Source of the DNA: Acidobacteriota bacterium
Lineage (GTDB): Bacteria > Acidobacteriota > Terriglobia > Acidiferrales > UBA7541
Length of the DNA stretch: 59,932 nucleotides
Direction: 5' to 3'
Assembly: GCA_003224145.1 (NCBI GenBank)
Contig: QHYN01000218.1
Location: 1-59,932 of the forward strand
The notes beneath the pieces were generated by a model. That model had not been told where the DNA came from and did no database searches. It saw only the letters and a program-made list of their open reading frames with translations. Made by a program: the position numbers and the translations under genes. Position 1 is the first letter of the stretch. Each line of letters begins with the position of its first letter. Positions 44,535 to 52,026 of the stretch are shown here, one piece after another.

Positions 44535-45290
44535 ATGAAGAGGCTATGGGCATCGGCATTTTTGCTGCTGGGGAGTGTGTGCGTGGCGCAGGCGCAGGTG
44601 AGCGCGCCAGCGCTGCAGGCCAATACGGGAAACGCCGCGCCGGAGTTCGCGGCGACTTCGGCGGCGAAGGCCACGCTGCTGGATTCACTGGCGGTGGCCG
44701 ATTCGCTCGCGCAGCCGGGCGCAAGAGCGGCGCACGCGTTTGCGGCTCCCACACTGACCACGGCGCTGCCGGCGGAGCCCGCGGCTGCGGATCCGGCGAC
44801 GCCATCGCCGAAACCGAAGTTTATTTACGGCGGACGCGATGACTACCGGTGGCAGTTGAGCCTGGCCGCTACGTGGGTTCGCTTCCGGTCGTCGGTGTTC
44901 AACGCCAGCGCGGTGGGATTGAAGACTACGGTTACGTATTTCACGAACGATTGGTTCGGAATCGAAGGCAGCTTTACCGGGGCCTTTGCGCCTGCGTATG
45001 CGAACGGACAGATTGTGAAGCTGGGACTTTATGGCGGCGGCCCCAAGATTGCTTGGCGGCAGAAGCGTTGGGAGCCCTGGATACACGGGATTTTTGGCGG
45101 CGCGCATGAACAGCCACAAACCGCTGCGGGAAGCCGCAACGCCTACTCGATCCAGCTTGGCGGCGGAGGGGATTACCGGTGGAACCCGCGCATTTCATTC
45201 CGGCTGGAAGGCGACTATGTGCGTACCGGGTTCTTCCATCAATCGCAGAACAGCTTCCAGTTGGCGGGCGGAATCGTGTTCCACTTCTAG
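44535..45290 (+). CDS. Outer-membrane beta-barrel protein (OmpA/OmpW-like), unknown
   Basis: The 251-residue product has a signal peptide (cleavage near AQA-QV), an Ala/Pro-rich linker (about 25-95) and an eight-stranded type barrel: alternating strands such as YRWQLSLAATWVRFRSSVF, WFGIEGSFTGAF and AYSIQLGGGGDYRWNPRISFRLEGDYV, ending in Phe (IVFHF). Aromatic girdles fit porin-like surface proteins. It converges on the TPR-barrel gene; the stop codons of both lie in a 17-bp tandem duplication containing CTTCTAGAAG. Confidence 0.72.
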   Translation: MKRLWASAFLLLGSVCVAQAQVSAPALQANTGNAAPEFAATSAAKATLLDSLAVADSLAQPGARAAHAFAAPTLTTALPAEPAAADPATPSPKPKFIYGGRDDYRWQLSLAATWVRFRSSVFNASAVGLKTTVTYFTNDWFGIEGSFTGAFAPAYANGQIVKLGLYGGGPKIAWRQKRWEPWIHGIFGGAHEQPQTAAGSRNAYSIQLGGGGDYRWNPRISFRLEGDYVRTGFFHQSQNSFQLAGGIVFHF

Positions 45291-45313
45291 AAGCGCTCCA
45301 CTTCTAGAAGGGG
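45281..45313. repeat. 17-bp tandem duplication carrying both convergent stop codons
   Basis: CCACTTCTAGAAG occurs at 45281-45293 and 45298-45310. The palindrome CTTCTAGAAG provides TAG on both strands: the first copy ends the plus-strand barrel gene (TAG 45288-45290), the second the minus-strand gene (45304-45306). Confidence 0.75.
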
Positions 45314-47013
45314 GCGTTTGAGGGGGCGCGCAGAACGGTTCCGTAGAAAACGCCCTTTCCTCCGCGAAGATTGCGTCCGTAAGAAAAAACGGCGGTGACG
45401 CTGCCAAGGATGCGGACTTTGCATTGCAAGCCGGAATCCCATTGCCAACGCTGTGAACCGAACACTCCCGAAGAATCCGCGATCGCGCCGCTGTCCAGAA
45501 ACGGCCCAAGCTTCAGGGCGAAAAAACCGTTCTCATAAATGTTCTTGTCCAGCTCCCAATTCGCAAGGAAGTAACGCCGGCCGAGCGGCGCGATGCCTTT
45601 GCGACCGCCGAGCGTTCCCGCGTGACCCCGGAGCCACAGATCGTTGTCACGTTCCACCCCCAATTGGAAAAGTTCATCGAGCGAGGCCTTGCCGGCAGTA
45701 GCCCCGACGCGAAGCCGCGTGTGCGTTTCGTAATCGTCGCCGTGTGCGCACGGGAGCCAGTGCGCAGTGAGCGATCCACGGAACGTGCCGAATGGGCCGA
45801 GAGGGTTGGCAAACTCGCGGCCCGCGCGGGCCTGCGCCGAGGAATCCAGAGTGAAGCGGCGCTCTGGAATGCGCGCGAGAGTTCGCTCGGCGCCGAGCCA
45901 GCTGGCGAGCGAGGTTGCGCCAGTGAAAAAAGGGCGCTGGGCGGGCGAGAGCGGGCTACTAACGTTGCGGAAATTGCGGCTGGCGGTTTCCGCGCCCGCG
46001 CTCCAACTCCAGCGGCCGTTCACAACGGAGTGAATTTCCACGCCCGCCGCGACTCGGCGCAGGTTCAAATCGGTGAGCGGGGCAGCGACCCCGAAGAAAG
46101 TCTGCGACAAGTTCCAGTTTTCATTGCGCGCGTCAGTGTAGATACGCAACCGCAGGCCGGGATCACCGAAGACGGGCGTGGAAAGGGCGAGGAAAAGGCG
46201 GCGCTTCTGCGAATCCCACCGCACGAGCGAGGTGAGATTCAAGGCGCGATGTCCCAGATTGTACATTTCCGGGTAAAGCGTGGCGTAGGGCAGGCCGCTC
46301 AAGAGCGAAATGGCACCTTCAAGTTTCGAATCGCCCCAGAGATTTCTCTCCGCCAGATGCAGCGTCAGGTCGTAATTTCCGGAATCGGCGGGCGTGAGTT
46401 CGGTGCGGCGGCTGGAAAAAATATCCAGATTGTCGAGACGCGATTCCGTAGTAAGCAGCGCATCGCCCGTCAGGATTTGCGGAGCGTTGAAGGCCAGGGC
46501 GCGATTGCGAAGCGACTCGTTCAGTTGCAGGAAAGGCGCGAAAGCTACAGTTCGCAATCGAGGCTTGTCTTCGGGATTCCAATATTTCAGGGCCGCTTCG
46601 AGATTGCCCTCGAGAAAATAGATGGTGGCGAGAAATTCGCGGGCGTAGGCGTCGCGCGGATTTAAGAGAAGCACCGCCTGGAGGCGGTTTTTAGCCGTGC
46701 GAAAATCTTTCTGCTTGTAGGCAATGCCAGCCAGTTCTACGGGAAACCGCGAATCGCGCGGTGATTTGCGCGCGCCTGTTTCGAACGCCAGTTTTGCGTC
46801 GTCCCATTTTTCCAGGCGGGACAAAGCCAGTCCTTGCAAGAAATCAAACTCGGTGGATTGATCCGCGGGACCGCGGGAGAGCCGGGCCGCCTCGTCCCAG
46901 TGCCCGGCGTCGAAAGCGCTTTGTGCGGCGGCGAGACGGGTTTGCTCAACGCTGTGATCTTGAGCGAATCCCGTAACGGGGAAAAGAAATAAAACGAGAA
47001 GAAAACCAATCAC
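45304..47013 (-). CDS. TPR protein with C-terminal Omp85-like beta-barrel
   Basis: The GTG at 47013 overlaps the C39 peptidase stop (GTGA) and gives 569 aa with a signal peptide (about 1-20, VIGFLLVLFLFPVTGFAQ). TPR helices follow (about 25-165: WDEAARLSRGPADQSTEFDFLQGLALSRLEKWDDAKLAFETGA in parts, AREFLATIYFLEGNLEAALKYW). The rest is barrel-like; its end (LGRRYFLANWELDK, LKLGPFLDSGAIAD, VFSYGRNLRGGKGVFYGTVL) matches Omp85/BamA-type strands. It may secrete or assemble a partner processed by the adjacent peptidase. The frame is open to 47553, but that part runs inside the peptidase gene. Confidence 0.75.
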   Translation of the reverse strand: MIGFLLVLFLFPVTGFAQDHSVEQTRLAAAQSAFDAGHWDEAARLSRGPADQSTEFDFLQGLALSRLEKWDDAKLAFETGARKSPRDSRFPVELAGIAYKQKDFRTAKNRLQAVLLLNPRDAYAREFLATIYFLEGNLEAALKYWNPEDKPRLRTVAFAPFLQLNESLRNRALAFNAPQILTGDALLTTESRLDNLDIFSSRRTELTPADSGNYDLTLHLAERNLWGDSKLEGAISLLSGLPYATLYPEMYNLGHRALNLTSLVRWDSQKRRLFLALSTPVFGDPGLRLRIYTDARNENWNLSQTFFGVAAPLTDLNLRRVAAGVEIHSVVNGRWSWSAGAETASRNFRNVSSPLSPAQRPFFTGATSLASWLGAERTLARIPERRFTLDSSAQARAGREFANPLGPFGTFRGSLTAHWLPCAHGDDYETHTRLRVGATAGKASLDELFQLGVERDNDLWLRGHAGTLGGRKGIAPLGRRYFLANWELDKNIYENGFFALKLGPFLDSGAIADSSGVFGSQRWQWDSGLQCKVRILGSVTAVFSYGRNLRGGKGVFYGTVLRAPSNAPF

Positions 47014-47546
47014 GCGGCCTTTTCGGGGACCGCCAGCAGCATCCAGTTGCGGTTGGGCCGCCATTGCTTTTCGAAGTCCGCCCGCTCCACACGAAGCAGT
47101 TTGCCACGCGCCGGGTCGTGGATGAAGGCAGCATTTGTCTGCCAATCGATCCCGGTCACCACAACGTAGTGGAGAGGTGTATTGGCGCTGCCGGGCTGGA
47201 GACTCACAATCAGCGGACGTCCCTGTTTGAGATGCTCCTGAAGTTCCGTCCAATTTCCGTCGAGGGTGAAAACCTTGAAGCCGGAGGCTTTCAGATAATT
47301 TCCCATGTCGGAGGCGAAGATGCCACGGGCCTTGCGCGAATAGAGCTGCTTCTGAATCGCTGTCGCATCGGCGCGCTGCGAGTCGATGCGCATGCCATGA
47401 GTGTTCCAATATTGCATGAGCATGGAAATCGCCGCGGACCCGCAGCCGTCTTCGGTTTGCTTTACGAAGGGCACGTCGAGCCAGATTCCCGCGCTTTCCT
47501 GGGACACGCATGGAATCGCGCGCCCCAGGAAGAGCATCAGGAACAA
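47010..47546 (-). CDS. C39 family (PA2778-like) cysteine peptidase, exported
   Basis: A papain-fold protein of 178 aa with an N-terminal signal segment. The catalytic set is visible: Gln30 and Cys35 in QTEDGCGSAAISML, His126 in PLHYVVVTGI and Asp144 in IHDPARG. C39 peptidases typically cleave double-glycine leaders inside bacteriocin exporters; this one stands alone outside the membrane. In Pseudomonas PA2778 the same domain is fused to TPRs and PA2779 is its neighbour; here the TPR part is the next gene. Start: TTG 47546 or ATG 47537. Confidence 0.82.
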   Translation of the reverse strand: MFLMLFLGRAIPCVSQESAGIWLDVPFVKQTEDGCGSAAISMLMQYWNTHGMRIDSQRADATAIQKQLYSRKARGIFASDMGNYLKASGFKVFTLDGNWTELQEHLKQGRPLIVSLQPGSANTPLHYVVVTGIDWQTNAAFIHDPARGKLLRVERADFEKQWRPNRNWMLLAVPEKAA

Positions 47547-47598
47547 ACCGCAAATGGCCCGGTTTAATCGCGTGACGGATTACTCCCGGTGTCAGAGG

Positions 47599-48003
47599 TC
47601 AGCGGAGAGCAACCGCCAGCACGATGATGCCGATAGCGATCAGGATGATCCAAAGCAAATCGCGGTCGGAAATGCGTCCTGCCGCAAAATCGGCTTGTGC
47701 TTGCCGAGAGCGCTCGGCCAGTCTGGCGAGATCTTCGTCGCTCAATTGGCCAACCGCTTTGTCCACTTTCTGATAATCGACGTGAGCGGATTTTAGGGCT
47801 TTCTGGCCCTGATCGGAAGAAAGCAGCGTTCGAACAGCTTCTTCATTCGCTTGGCGCGTCTGGGCCAGCCGCGCGGAGTCTTTGTTCAGGTCAGCGAGAG
47901 AAACAACATGTGGTTTGTCCTGGGCCCGCGCTGGGATTCCTGCCGCAACGAGCAGCGTGGCAATCGCCAGCAGAGAAACACACATCTTGACGCGAGAGTG
48001 CAT
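47599..48003 (-). CDS. Small exported protein with C-terminal membrane helix (PA2779-like)
   Basis: The protein (134 aa) has a signal peptide (about 8-27), a helical middle (VRTLLSSDQGQKALKSAHVDYQKVDKAVGQLSDEDLARLAERSRQ) and a C-terminal membrane helix (about 114-133, DLLWIILIAIGIIVLAVAL). The pattern of short helical domain then C-terminal anchor is like PA2779-family proteins, which I know as neighbours of PA2778 peptidases; the sequence match is loose. It is the first gene of the three-gene operon, 52 nt before the peptidase. Confidence 0.62.
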   Translation of the reverse strand: MHSRVKMCVSLLAIATLLVAAGIPARAQDKPHVVSLADLNKDSARLAQTRQANEEAVRTLLSSDQGQKALKSAHVDYQKVDKAVGQLSDEDLARLAERSRQAQADFAAGRISDRDLLWIILIAIGIIVLAVALR

Positions 48004-48220
48004 TCTTCCTCCTAGTTGTGTGGCTGGGGCGTAGACCTAGTTTACGAATTGCACCGCGTGGTGACAAGAAACTTCTGCAAATGCTAGTGGCTCCTCAGCG
48101 TTCGCGGATTTTACAAGCTCAGTTGACACTTTGACATTTCATTTAGGAATGACGCCGCCTCGTTGGGCACACCGCCTGGTTAATTGACAGTTGCCGCCTG
48201 GACGGGTCGGGGAACACCGG

Positions 48221-48709
48221 TCACTTCGCGGGAAGCGGCTGCTGGTATTTCGTGGCGTCCACGGATTTCCACTCGCCCTTGATGATTCCTTCCCGAATCT
48301 GGGCTGCGGTCTTGCCCTTGCGAGCTTGTTCGTAGCTGTAAAGATCTTCGTAGATACATGTGCCGCATTCCGAGCCGTGAGCACTGGTAAAGCAATCCAG
48401 CAGGCTGGAGTGGCCGTTGCTGCGGTCGCAGTGGCAATAGCAAGGTTGCTGGTACAGCGTTTTCTTGACCTTTGCGGCCACCGCGTAAGCATTTTGCACG
48501 AAGGGGTTGCTGAAGAGTTCGGGGCTCATCGTTGCGGGGAGGTCTCCCTTGGGAGCCTGTGCATGAAAGGCAGGCACGGGGTCATCCGCTTGTGACCGAG
48601 GCGCGTTCGCCTGAAGCGAGCCGGAAGAGGCCGGTTGAGGAATGAGGATGAACGCCAGTGCCAGGCCGAAAACAATCGCCGCGCTCCACATTTTGTGGAC
48701 TCCTTGCAT
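48221..48709 (-). CDS. Exported Cys-rich protein with PCYCGC-like motif
   Basis: The protein (162 aa) has a signal or anchor segment (about 8-26), a Pro/Ala linker and a compact Cys/His domain: Cys90, Cys92, His93, Cys94, His100, Cys106, His111, Cys115, Cys118 (QPCYCHCDRSNGHSSLLDCF). This is the PCYCGC family, first noted in Bacillus lipoproteins of unknown role; metal or haem binding is likely. GGGAGG precedes the ATG at 48709. No lipobox is seen. It lies upstream of the C39 operon with its own gap. Confidence 0.78.
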   Translation of the reverse strand: MQGVHKMWSAAIVFGLALAFILIPQPASSGSLQANAPRSQADDPVPAFHAQAPKGDLPATMSPELFSNPFVQNAYAVAAKVKKTLYQQPCYCHCDRSNGHSSLLDCFTSAHGSECGTCIYEDLYSYEQARKGKTAAQIREGIIKGEWKSVDATKYQQPLPAK

Positions 48710-50325: not shown

Positions 50326-52026
50326 ATGTCGCGGGTAGTAAAGACCCTGTTCGCATCGGTTTTTTCCTTGGTCATCTGGCTGCCGGTAGCTCTTGCCCAG
50401 GAAGCGCAGGATCCGGGGACCACGCCAAGTCCTACAAAAAAGCTAGACAAAGAGACCAAGCGCAAGATGAAGCGCACGCTGAAGGAGTTGGACAACGCTT
50501 ACCGGCAGTGGCTCACGGAGGATGTTACTTATATCATTTCGCCGGAAGAACGCAATGCCTTCCTTCAACTGGATACGAACGAAGAGCGCGAACAATTCAT
50601 CGAGGCCTTCTGGCTGCGCCGCAGCAGCAATCCCGACCTGCCAGACAACGATTTTAAAGAAGAGCACTACCGCCGCATTGCCTACGCCAACGAACACTAT
50701 GCTTCCGGCATCCCGGGCTGGAAGACCGATCGCGGACGCATGTACATCATGTGGGGCCCGCCCGACGAGATTGATGCTCACCCGACGGGCGGCACCTACG
50801 ACCGGCCGATGGAAGAGGGTGGCGGCTCGACGTCAACATATCCGTGGGAAACCTGGCGCTGGCGGTATCTGGAAGGAATTGGAGAAAACATCATTCTGGA
50901 ATTCGTCGATCCGAGCGGCTCGGGCGAGTATCACCTGACCATGGATCCATCCGAAAAAGATGCACTCTTGCACGTGCCGGGCGCGGGCCTGAGTTTGCTC
51001 GAATCGATGGGTATGTCGACGAAGGCTGACCGGTTCACGCGCTCCGACGGCACGACCCTTCCGAAATCCATGGGCGGCCAACCGGCCAGCATGGACGAAT
51101 TCAACCGCCTCGAGCTTTATGCCAAGGTCAACAAGCCGCCGGAAGTCAAGTTCAAGGATCTGGAATCGTTGGTGACGCACCGCATTGTCCGCGATCAAGT
51201 GCACTTCACCTGGCGGACGGATTTTCTTAAAGTGACGAATGAAACCGTGCTGGTGCCCGTCACCATCCAGATTCCCAATAGCCAGCTTTCTTTTCAGGCA
51301 AAGGACGGAATCCATTCCGCAACTATGAATATATTCGGGCGCGTGACCACGTTGACTGGCCGCGTCGTGCAGACCTTCGAAGATCCGGTCAGCCGCGACT
51401 TCCCGGATTCTCTGTTCCAGCAGTCGCTGAAGCTGCAATCGATTTATCAGAAAGCCGTTCCGCTGCGCCCGGGCTTGTACCGCCTGGACCTGGTGATCAA
51501 AGACGTGCAGAGCGGAAACGTCGGTGTGGTGAATAGCCGGTTGGCGGTGCCTCGCTACGAGGATGAAAAACTCGACGCCAGCTCGCTGATTCTTGCCGAC
51601 CAGCTCGAGCGGGTCCCCGCGAAACAGATCGGGGCAGGGCAATTCGTCCTGGGTTCCACGAAAGTGCGGCCGCGTCTGGAAAGCGATTTCACGACGAGCG
51701 ACCGGCTCGGAATCTATCTCCAGGTCTACAACCTCAAGCCGGACGAAAAGACGCATAAATCCAATGCAACGTTCGAGTTCAACGTGAAGAGGGGCGTTGA
51801 GCAGGTTCTGCAATTCAAAGAAACGTCGGAGGAGATGAAGCAGACAGGCGACCAGATTACTATCGAGCGGTGGCTGCCACTCGCGACGCTCACCCCGGGG
51901 AAGTACACGCTGGTGGTCAACGCCACGGACACTCTTTCGAATCAGACCATTTCGCGCACGGCGGATTTTACGGTGAAGGCGCCGCAGCAGATTAAAACTA
52001 CGGCGAGCACAGCACCGGGGAGGTAA
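50326..52026 (+). CDS. GWxTD domain-containing exported protein
   Basis: A 566-residue protein with a signal peptide (about 5-25). The GWxTD domain (about 50-190) has YRQWLTEDVTYIISPEE, RDQ-type FIEAFWLRRSSNPD, HYASGIPGWKTDRGRMYIMWGPPDEID and PWETWRWRYL. The C-terminal half has beta-sandwich modules. GWxTD proteins are found in Acidobacteriota, Bacteroidota and relatives; function is unknown. The carboxypeptidase-regulatory protein starts 7 nt after its stop, so the two form a unit. Confidence 0.88.
   Translation: MSRVVKTLFASVFSLVIWLPVALAQEAQDPGTTPSPTKKLDKETKRKMKRTLKELDNAYRQWLTEDVTYIISPEERNAFLQLDTNEEREQFIEAFWLRRSSNPDLPDNDFKEEHYRRIAYANEHYASGIPGWKTDRGRMYIMWGPPDEIDAHPTGGTYDRPMEEGGGSTSTYPWETWRWRYLEGIGENIILEFVDPSGSGEYHLTMDPSEKDALLHVPGAGLSLLESMGMSTKADRFTRSDGTTLPKSMGGQPASMDEFNRLELYAKVNKPPEVKFKDLESLVTHRIVRDQVHFTWRTDFLKVTNETVLVPVTIQIPNSQLSFQAKDGIHSATMNIFGRVTTLTGRVVQTFEDPVSRDFPDSLFQQSLKLQSIYQKAVPLRPGLYRLDLVIKDVQSGNVGVVNSRLAVPRYEDEKLDASSLILADQLERVPAKQIGAGQFVLGSTKVRPRLESDFTTSDRLGIYLQVYNLKPDEKTHKSNATFEFNVKRGVEQVLQFKETSEEMKQTGDQITIERWLPLATLTPGKYTLVVNATDTLSNQTISRTADFTVKAPQQIKTTASTAPGR

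What the first reader, a model, noticed from the sequence alone, without database searches (positions are those of the whole stretch)
45304..48003. Three-gene envelope operon: membrane protein, free C39 peptidase, TPR-Omp85-like barrel
An exported C39 peptidase outside any exporter, coupled by GTGA overlap to a protein joining TPRs with an Omp85-like barrel, and led by a PA2779-like anchored protein. It resembles the PA2778/PA2779 pair but with the TPR part moved onto a barrel. This could be an undescribed surface processing or secretion system. A separate small barrel gene converges on it.
Basis: partly seen in the sequence, partly recalled or inferred. Interest (0 to 1): 0.6.

Follow-up and report, generated by a model that had tools for sequence, protein, structure and literature searches.

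The report
Protease-docked Omp85 outer membrane operon
Acidobacteria carry a conserved three-gene unit that couples a small exported cutting enzyme to an outer-membrane protein-transport barrel, sometimes fused into one protein, next to a membrane-tethered protein with a built-in cut-site-like motif; it looks like a protein processing and export module that I found described nowhere.

Summary
Confirmed, and stronger than first seen. Minus strand: a PA2779-like membrane protein (MEM, 47599-48003), an exported C39 peptidase with intact Q-C-H-D site (47010-47546) and, overlapping by GTGA, BAR (45304-47013). The order MEM-C39-BAR holds in 35 of 37 relatives that have the peptidase. In 12 other Acidobacteriota genomes C39, TPR, POTRA and Omp85 are one polypeptide, nearly always beside MEM; most scanned fusions match the PA2778 model (C39 plus TPR) over nearly its whole length. 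So this is a PA2778/PA2779 module with an Omp85 translocon added, here split after the peptidase. In MEM the most conserved residue across 48 sequences is a Gly just before the C-terminal membrane helix, in the form (A/G)G, as expected of a double-glycine C39 site. Most likely mechanism (inferred): the barrel-docked peptidase cuts MEM at FAAG and the freed domain is handed to the barrel. Cleavage, substrate identity and transport are untested. No paper in the held library describes it.

The parts
47599..48003 (-). MEM: PA2779-like exported single-pass membrane protein, 134 aa: signal peptide, helical periplasmic domain, FAAG motif, C-terminal TM helix
   Evidence: NF033919 E 1.4e-9; 25/25 relatives hit the same model; alignment
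47677..47688 (-). FAAG motif of MEM (residues 106-109), proposed C39 cleavage site; G109 is the most conserved residue of the family
   Evidence: 47/48 Gly at P1; only Ala (34) or Gly (14) at P2
47605..47658 (-). C-terminal TM helix of MEM
   Evidence: hydrophobic stretch conserved in all relatives
47010..47546 (-). C39 double-glycine-type cysteine peptidase, exported, 178 aa; Q30, C35, H126, D144 invariant in 25 relatives
   Evidence: PF13529 E 3.3e-17, NF033920 E 9e-15; invariant columns; profile hits the AMS/PCAT double-Gly protease and ComA
47010..47013 (-). GTGA overlap: stop of C39 and start of BAR
   Evidence: sequence
45304..47013 (-). BAR: TPR-POTRA-Omp85 outer membrane protein, 569 aa, own signal peptide
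   Evidence: AlphaFold model; fold search
46570..46956 (-). TPR domain of BAR (residues 20-148, eight helices)
   Evidence: PF13432 and PF14559 over cut-off; model
46348..46560 (-). POTRA domain of BAR (residues 152-222, beta-alpha-alpha-beta-beta)
   Evidence: model; aligned from residue 151 with BamA/TamA POTRA-barrel
45328..46269 (-). Omp85 barrel of BAR (residues 249-562)
   Evidence: VIA Z 24.5 to F. nucleatum BamA, 372 aligned; 8/29 relatives hit NF047779 Omp85 at E down to 0.0012
45622..45639 (-). Omp85 motif-3-like LWLRGH (R462 invariant)
   Evidence: invariant in 29 relatives and in fusions
45487..45507 (-). Omp85 motif-4-like GPFLDSG (D507, G509 invariant)
   Evidence: the Asp is also invariant in the mixed alignment with fusions
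48039..48067 (-). sigma-70-like promoter match upstream of MEM (weak)
   Evidence: 2 found against 0.9 expected

Best explanation
An envelope processing-and-export module. MEM, C39 and BAR are exported by Sec. BAR sits in the outer membrane with its TPRs and single POTRA in the periplasm. The peptidase docks on BAR, probably through the TPRs; in fused relatives it is covalently attached. MEM is held in the inner membrane by its C-terminal helix, with its helical domain in the periplasm. The peptidase cuts MEM after FAAG (LAGG or PAGG in relatives), as C39 peptidases cut after a double glycine, which releases the soluble domain from its anchor, and the released product is passed by TPR and POTRA to the Omp85 barrel for insertion into or passage across the outer membrane. 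Shown by sequence and comparison: domain make-up, intact catalytic residues, operon conservation, natural fusion, extreme conservation of the (A/G)G site. Inferred: docking by TPR, cleavage of MEM, handover to the barrel, destination.
For: Omp85 fold with one POTRA. C39 profile hits the AMS/PCAT double-glycine protease and ComA, with invariant Q, C, H and D. The fusion L079 folds (pLDDT 85.2, pTM 0.83) with residues 42-185 on the ComA peptidase (Z 17.9, rmsd 2.0), 38-187 on the double-glycine protease solved with a leader peptide (6mpz, Z 17.6) and 304-705 on TamA (Z 21.2). Fusions in 12 genomes. Operon order kept in 35 of 37 relatives with the peptidase (with the tandem MEM of G033). MEM: the most conserved column is the Gly before the TM, P2 always Ala or Gly, across split and fused Acidobacteria and two Proteobacteria. 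MEM is duplicated in tandem in three genomes, as substrates often are. Precedent: FapD, a Sec-exported periplasmic C39 peptidase, is needed for secretion through an outer membrane barrel (PMC5557850).
Against: No experiment on any member. The split clade has AG, not GG, at P2-P1, which is not the canonical double glycine. C39 sites normally follow an N-terminal leader; here the site is C-terminal. A small residue before a TM helix could be structural. Two genomes have the peptidase without MEM and BAR, and six have BAR-like matches (28-42% identity) without a C39 hit. No MEM was found within about 1.5 kb in four f29 genomes.
Confidence: 0.48

Rival explanations
1. MEM is not the substrate but an inner-membrane tether or regulator that brings the barrel-docked peptidase to the Sec exit; the peptidase processes other, unlinked cargo that the Omp85 barrel then exports.
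For: Only one MEM-like protein and one C39_2 protein in the genome, so cargo would have to be unlinked; the PA2778/PA2779 pair in two Proteobacteria has no barrel gene next to it, so MEM and peptidase can work without this translocon.
Against: The most conserved feature of MEM is a peptidase-site-like motif rather than a binding surface, and MEM is duplicated in tandem.
Confidence: 0.25
2. A quality-control or assembly factor for outer membrane proteins: a peptidase plus TPR docked on an Omp85 barrel acts like BepA (a TPR-containing periplasmic peptidase) acts on the BAM complex, degrading or freeing stalled barrels.
For: TPR plus peptidase plus Omp85 is the BepA-BAM combination in one unit (BepA/BAM work in PMC8423444, abstract seen); closest folds are BamA and TamA.
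Against: C39 peptidases are, as a family, site-specific leader peptidases; patchy distribution (26 of 297 phylum genomes) argues against a general assembly role; the genome has three other Omp85 matches.
Confidence: 0.17
3. A Fap-like fibre export system: C39 peptidase activates secretion of fibre subunits through the barrel.
For: 5 of 25 C39 relatives weakly hit FapD; FapD needs peptidase activity for secretion.
Against: FapF is a 12-strand trimeric barrel with a coiled coil, not Omp85; no repeat-rich subunit gene is in the conserved operon.
Confidence: 0.04
4. A TPR-barrel polysaccharide exporter of the PgaA, BcsC or PelB kind.
For: 10 of 29 BAR relatives hit PgaA and 6 hit BcsC.
Against: For the window's protein the TPR-family matches lie in the TPR part; the barrel is Omp85 with a POTRA; no glycosyltransferase gene in the operon.
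Confidence: 0.02

Closest known systems
PA2778/PA2779 pair (NF033920, NF033919)
   Same: C39 peptidase next to an exported membrane protein with (A/G)G before a C-terminal TM; TPR follows the C39 domain
   Different: Proteobacterial PA2778 of Eleftheria is a C39-TPR protein with a lipobox-like signal and no barrel gene beside it; here TPR is joined to POTRA-Omp85, or all is fused
Omp85/TpsB superfamily (BamA, TamA, FhaC, PlpD)
   Same: POTRA plus Omp85 barrel fold and signature motifs
   Different: One POTRA, N-terminal TPRs and a linked or fused C39 peptidase; not among the ten subfamilies of Heinz and Lithgow 2014 (PMC4104836)
Fap amyloid secretion (FapD with FapF)
   Same: Sec-exported C39 peptidase working with an outer membrane barrel
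   Different: Other barrel fold, amyloid substrates, no TPR, no PA2779-like protein
GlyGly-CTERM and rhombosortase
   Same: Glycine motif, TM helix and short tail at the C-terminus, proposed cleavage by a partner protease (PMC3237569)
   Different: Partner is a soluble or barrel-linked C39 peptidase, not an intramembrane rhomboid; one dedicated partner protein
Peptidase-containing ABC transporters (PCAT, ComA)
   Same: C39 double-glycine peptidase fused or docked to the transporter
   Different: Periplasmic peptidase on an outer membrane Omp85 barrel instead of a cytoplasmic one on an ABC exporter

Membership tests
Omp85/TpsB superfamily | Omp85 barrel fold preceded by POTRA | tested here: met
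   Model residues 151-563 align with BamA/TamA POTRA plus barrel, Z up to 24.5
Omp85/TpsB superfamily | Conserved Arg and Asp motifs in the last third of the barrel | tested here: met
   R462 and D507 invariant in 29 relatives and, as R603 and D648 of L079, in the mixed alignment with fusions; that these are motifs 3 and 4 rests on my knowledge of the family
Omp85/TpsB superfamily | Sequence-profile match over curated cut-off (a detection aid, not part of the fold definition) | tested here: not met
   NF047779 only E 0.15 for the window protein, best 0.0012 among relatives; PF01103 not found in this protein
BamA | Five POTRA domains | tested here: not met
   One POTRA in the model
FhaC/TpsB two-partner translocators | Two POTRA domains and an adjacent exoprotein gene | tested here: not met
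   One POTRA; no such gene in the conserved operon
PlpD (patatin-Omp85) | Patatin domain | tested here: not met
   No patatin hit in Pfam
PA2778 cysteine peptidase (NF033920) | C39 domain with catalytic Q, C, H | tested here: met
PA2778 cysteine peptidase (NF033920) | C-terminal TPR on the same chain and score over the cut-off of 150 | tested here: not met
   55 bits, C39 part only; four of five fusions scanned cover 2-247 of 255, but at 39-72 bits
PA2779 family (NF033919) | Score over the cut-off of 40 | tested here: not met
   38.2 bits, just below; 25 of 25 relatives match at E under 0.001
Fap system | FapF-type barrel and amyloid subunits | tested here: not met
   Barrel is Omp85; no subunit genes in the operon
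GlyGly-CTERM | Partner rhombosortase | not tested
   Rhombosortase was not sought in the genome
C39 double-glycine peptidases | Cleavage after a double glycine | not testable with these tools
   Needs biochemistry

The most novel reading that the evidence does not exclude
A previously undescribed outer membrane secretion or assembly machine in which a double-glycine peptidase is built into or docked on an Omp85 translocon and releases a C-terminally anchored partner protein for export, the first case of C39 leader-type processing coupled to Omp85.
Probability: 0.4. Interest if true: 0.8.

Novelty: new variant of a known kind. Interest (0 to 1): 0.62.

Why it matters
The functions of PA2778 and PA2779, a pair also present in Pseudomonas, are unknown; none of the papers I found reports one. 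The fusion with an Omp85 barrel places the peptidase at the outer membrane and makes a concrete, testable proposal for what it cuts and where. It also adds a peptidase-carrying architecture to Omp85, a superfamily whose members fold or translocate outer membrane proteins.

Tried and rejected
Polysaccharide-export TPR-porin reading: rejected on the fold. The converging small barrel as a part: rejected, position not conserved outside the genus. G496/L114 as a third split form (C39-TPR then POTRA-barrel): set aside, looks like a frameshift in a fusion. A survey beyond the phylum: not possible with the centre offered; plasmid searches gave two proteobacterial PA2778/PA2779 pairs without a barrel gene beside them and two weak Deinococcus C39 hits. 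The PA2779 probe for one search was recalled from memory and served only as a search bait; the hits are annotated as that family and one was confirmed with NF033919. Viral structure library: nothing informative.

Full report
What is there. The window comes from an acidobacterium; its closest named relatives are gp2 and Candidatus Acidiferrum genomes. Three genes run on the minus strand. MEM (47599-48003, 134 aa) has a signal peptide and a C-terminal membrane helix. C39 (47010-47546, 178 aa from a TTG start; the true start is uncertain because relatives' start codons align upstream of it) is an exported peptidase. BAR (45304-47013, 569 aa) starts with GTG inside the stop of C39 (GTGA) and has its own signal peptide.

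Domains. Pfam and NCBIfam name MEM as PA2779-like (E 1.4e-9), C39 as PF13529 and PA2778-like, and BAR only as TPR. All 25 MEM relatives match NF033919 and all 25 C39 relatives match NF033920. In C39 the residues Q30, C35, H126 and D144 are invariant in 25 relatives, and the C39 profile reaches the AMS/PCAT double-glycine protease and ComA.

The barrel. AlphaFold on an alignment of 29 relatives gives pLDDT 84.8 and pTM 0.82: eight TPR helices (20-148), a POTRA (152-222) and a barrel (249-562). Foldseek finds TamA, BamA, the SAM complex barrel and CdiB (E down to 5.5e-13), and VIA aligns residues 151-563 to BamA, TamA and FhaC at Z 21-24.5. The sequence motifs LWLRGH and GPFLDSG, with invariant R462, D507 and G509, are what I would expect of Omp85 motifs 3 and 4. 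Sequence profiles alone would have missed this: NF047779 gives E 0.15 for the window protein and 0.0012 at best among relatives. The genome has three other Omp85 matches, so this one is extra.

Conservation. In 121 genomes (the window's own included), 35 have all three genes, and 35 of 37 with the peptidase have MEM, C39 and BAR in this order, on one strand and close together. The script counted 34; the 35th, G033, has a second MEM copy right before C39 that the script's list missed. Across Terriglobia the trio survives down to 35% identity in BAR. It is patchy in the phylum: 26 of 297 genomes match BAR, several of them through the TPR part only.

Natural fusions. In twelve genomes outside the window's class, from several families, one frame encodes C39, TPR, POTRA and Omp85; MEM lies next to it in eleven of the twelve. 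Four of the five fusions scanned match NF033920 over its C39 and TPR parts (2-247 of 255) and then continue into POTRA and barrel. The L079 fusion folds well (pLDDT 85.2, pTM 0.83): residues 42-185 fit the ComA peptidase (Z 17.9, rmsd 2.0), 38-187 the double-glycine protease 6mpz (Z 17.6), and 304-705 TamA (Z 21.2). This ties peptidase and barrel into one machine, and shows that the window's split lies after the C39 domain.

The motif in MEM. In the split clade, MEM carries FAAG just before the membrane helix; in the fused clade LAGG or similar; in two proteobacterial PA2779 proteins PAGG. Over 48 sequences the most conserved column is that Gly (47 of 48); the residue before it is only Ala (34) or Gly (14). 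Leucines and an acidic residue upstream (LSDxELxxL) recall the leader motif of double-glycine peptides. I read this as the peptidase site (inference). Cutting there would free the helical domain from its anchor. Three genomes carry MEM in tandem copies.

Mechanism and rivals. I think the peptidase, docked on or fused to the barrel, cuts MEM and the product goes to the barrel (0.48). MEM could instead be a tether while other cargo is cut (0.25), or the unit could be an outer membrane quality-control factor like BepA with BAM (0.17). FapD and FapF show experimentally that a periplasmic C39 peptidase can be needed for export through a barrel (PMC5557850), though with another barrel fold.

Known or new. 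Heinz and Lithgow (PMC4104836) list ten Omp85 subfamilies; the text has no mention of TPR or cysteine peptidase. No paper in the held library contains Omp85, C39, peptidase and POTRA together, and the papers naming PA2778 or PA2779 report no function for them that I could find; the library is open-licence only. I file it as a new variant: PA2778/PA2779 plus Omp85.

Limits. Everything is comparative and predicted. Genomes are mostly MAGs. Other phyla could not be surveyed for the fusion.

Noticed in passing
44535-45290 +: Small outer-membrane-barrel-like protein whose stop lies 13 bases from that of BAR; found only in the same genus and up to about 3 kb away in some relatives, so not part of the unit.
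   Followed up: partly
48221-48709 -: CYCXC/PCYCGC family (seleno)protein, NF041379 97 bits, next to the operon only within the genus and its near relatives.
   Followed up: no
L129, L131, G033:C144: MEM is present in two tandem copies in three genomes.
   Followed up: partly
window 47546-47576: The start codon of C39 is unclear: ATG of relatives aligns with a TTA here, and the only in-frame usual starts (TTG 47546, ATG 47537) leave a signal peptide with few basic residues.
   Followed up: no
L101 6465-7427: Proteobacterial PA2778 of Eleftheria aligns without the Asp of the triad (RSG where Acidobacteria have HDP or NDP).
   Followed up: no
L114: C39-TPR frame followed by a POTRA-barrel frame; looks like a frameshift inside a fusion.
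   Followed up: partly
L075-L078: A family with C39 and BAR but no MEM found within about 1.5 kb.
   Followed up: no
50326-52026 +: Exported protein of about 566 aa, GWxTD-like by my reading, syntenic with the operon throughout the genus.
   Followed up: no
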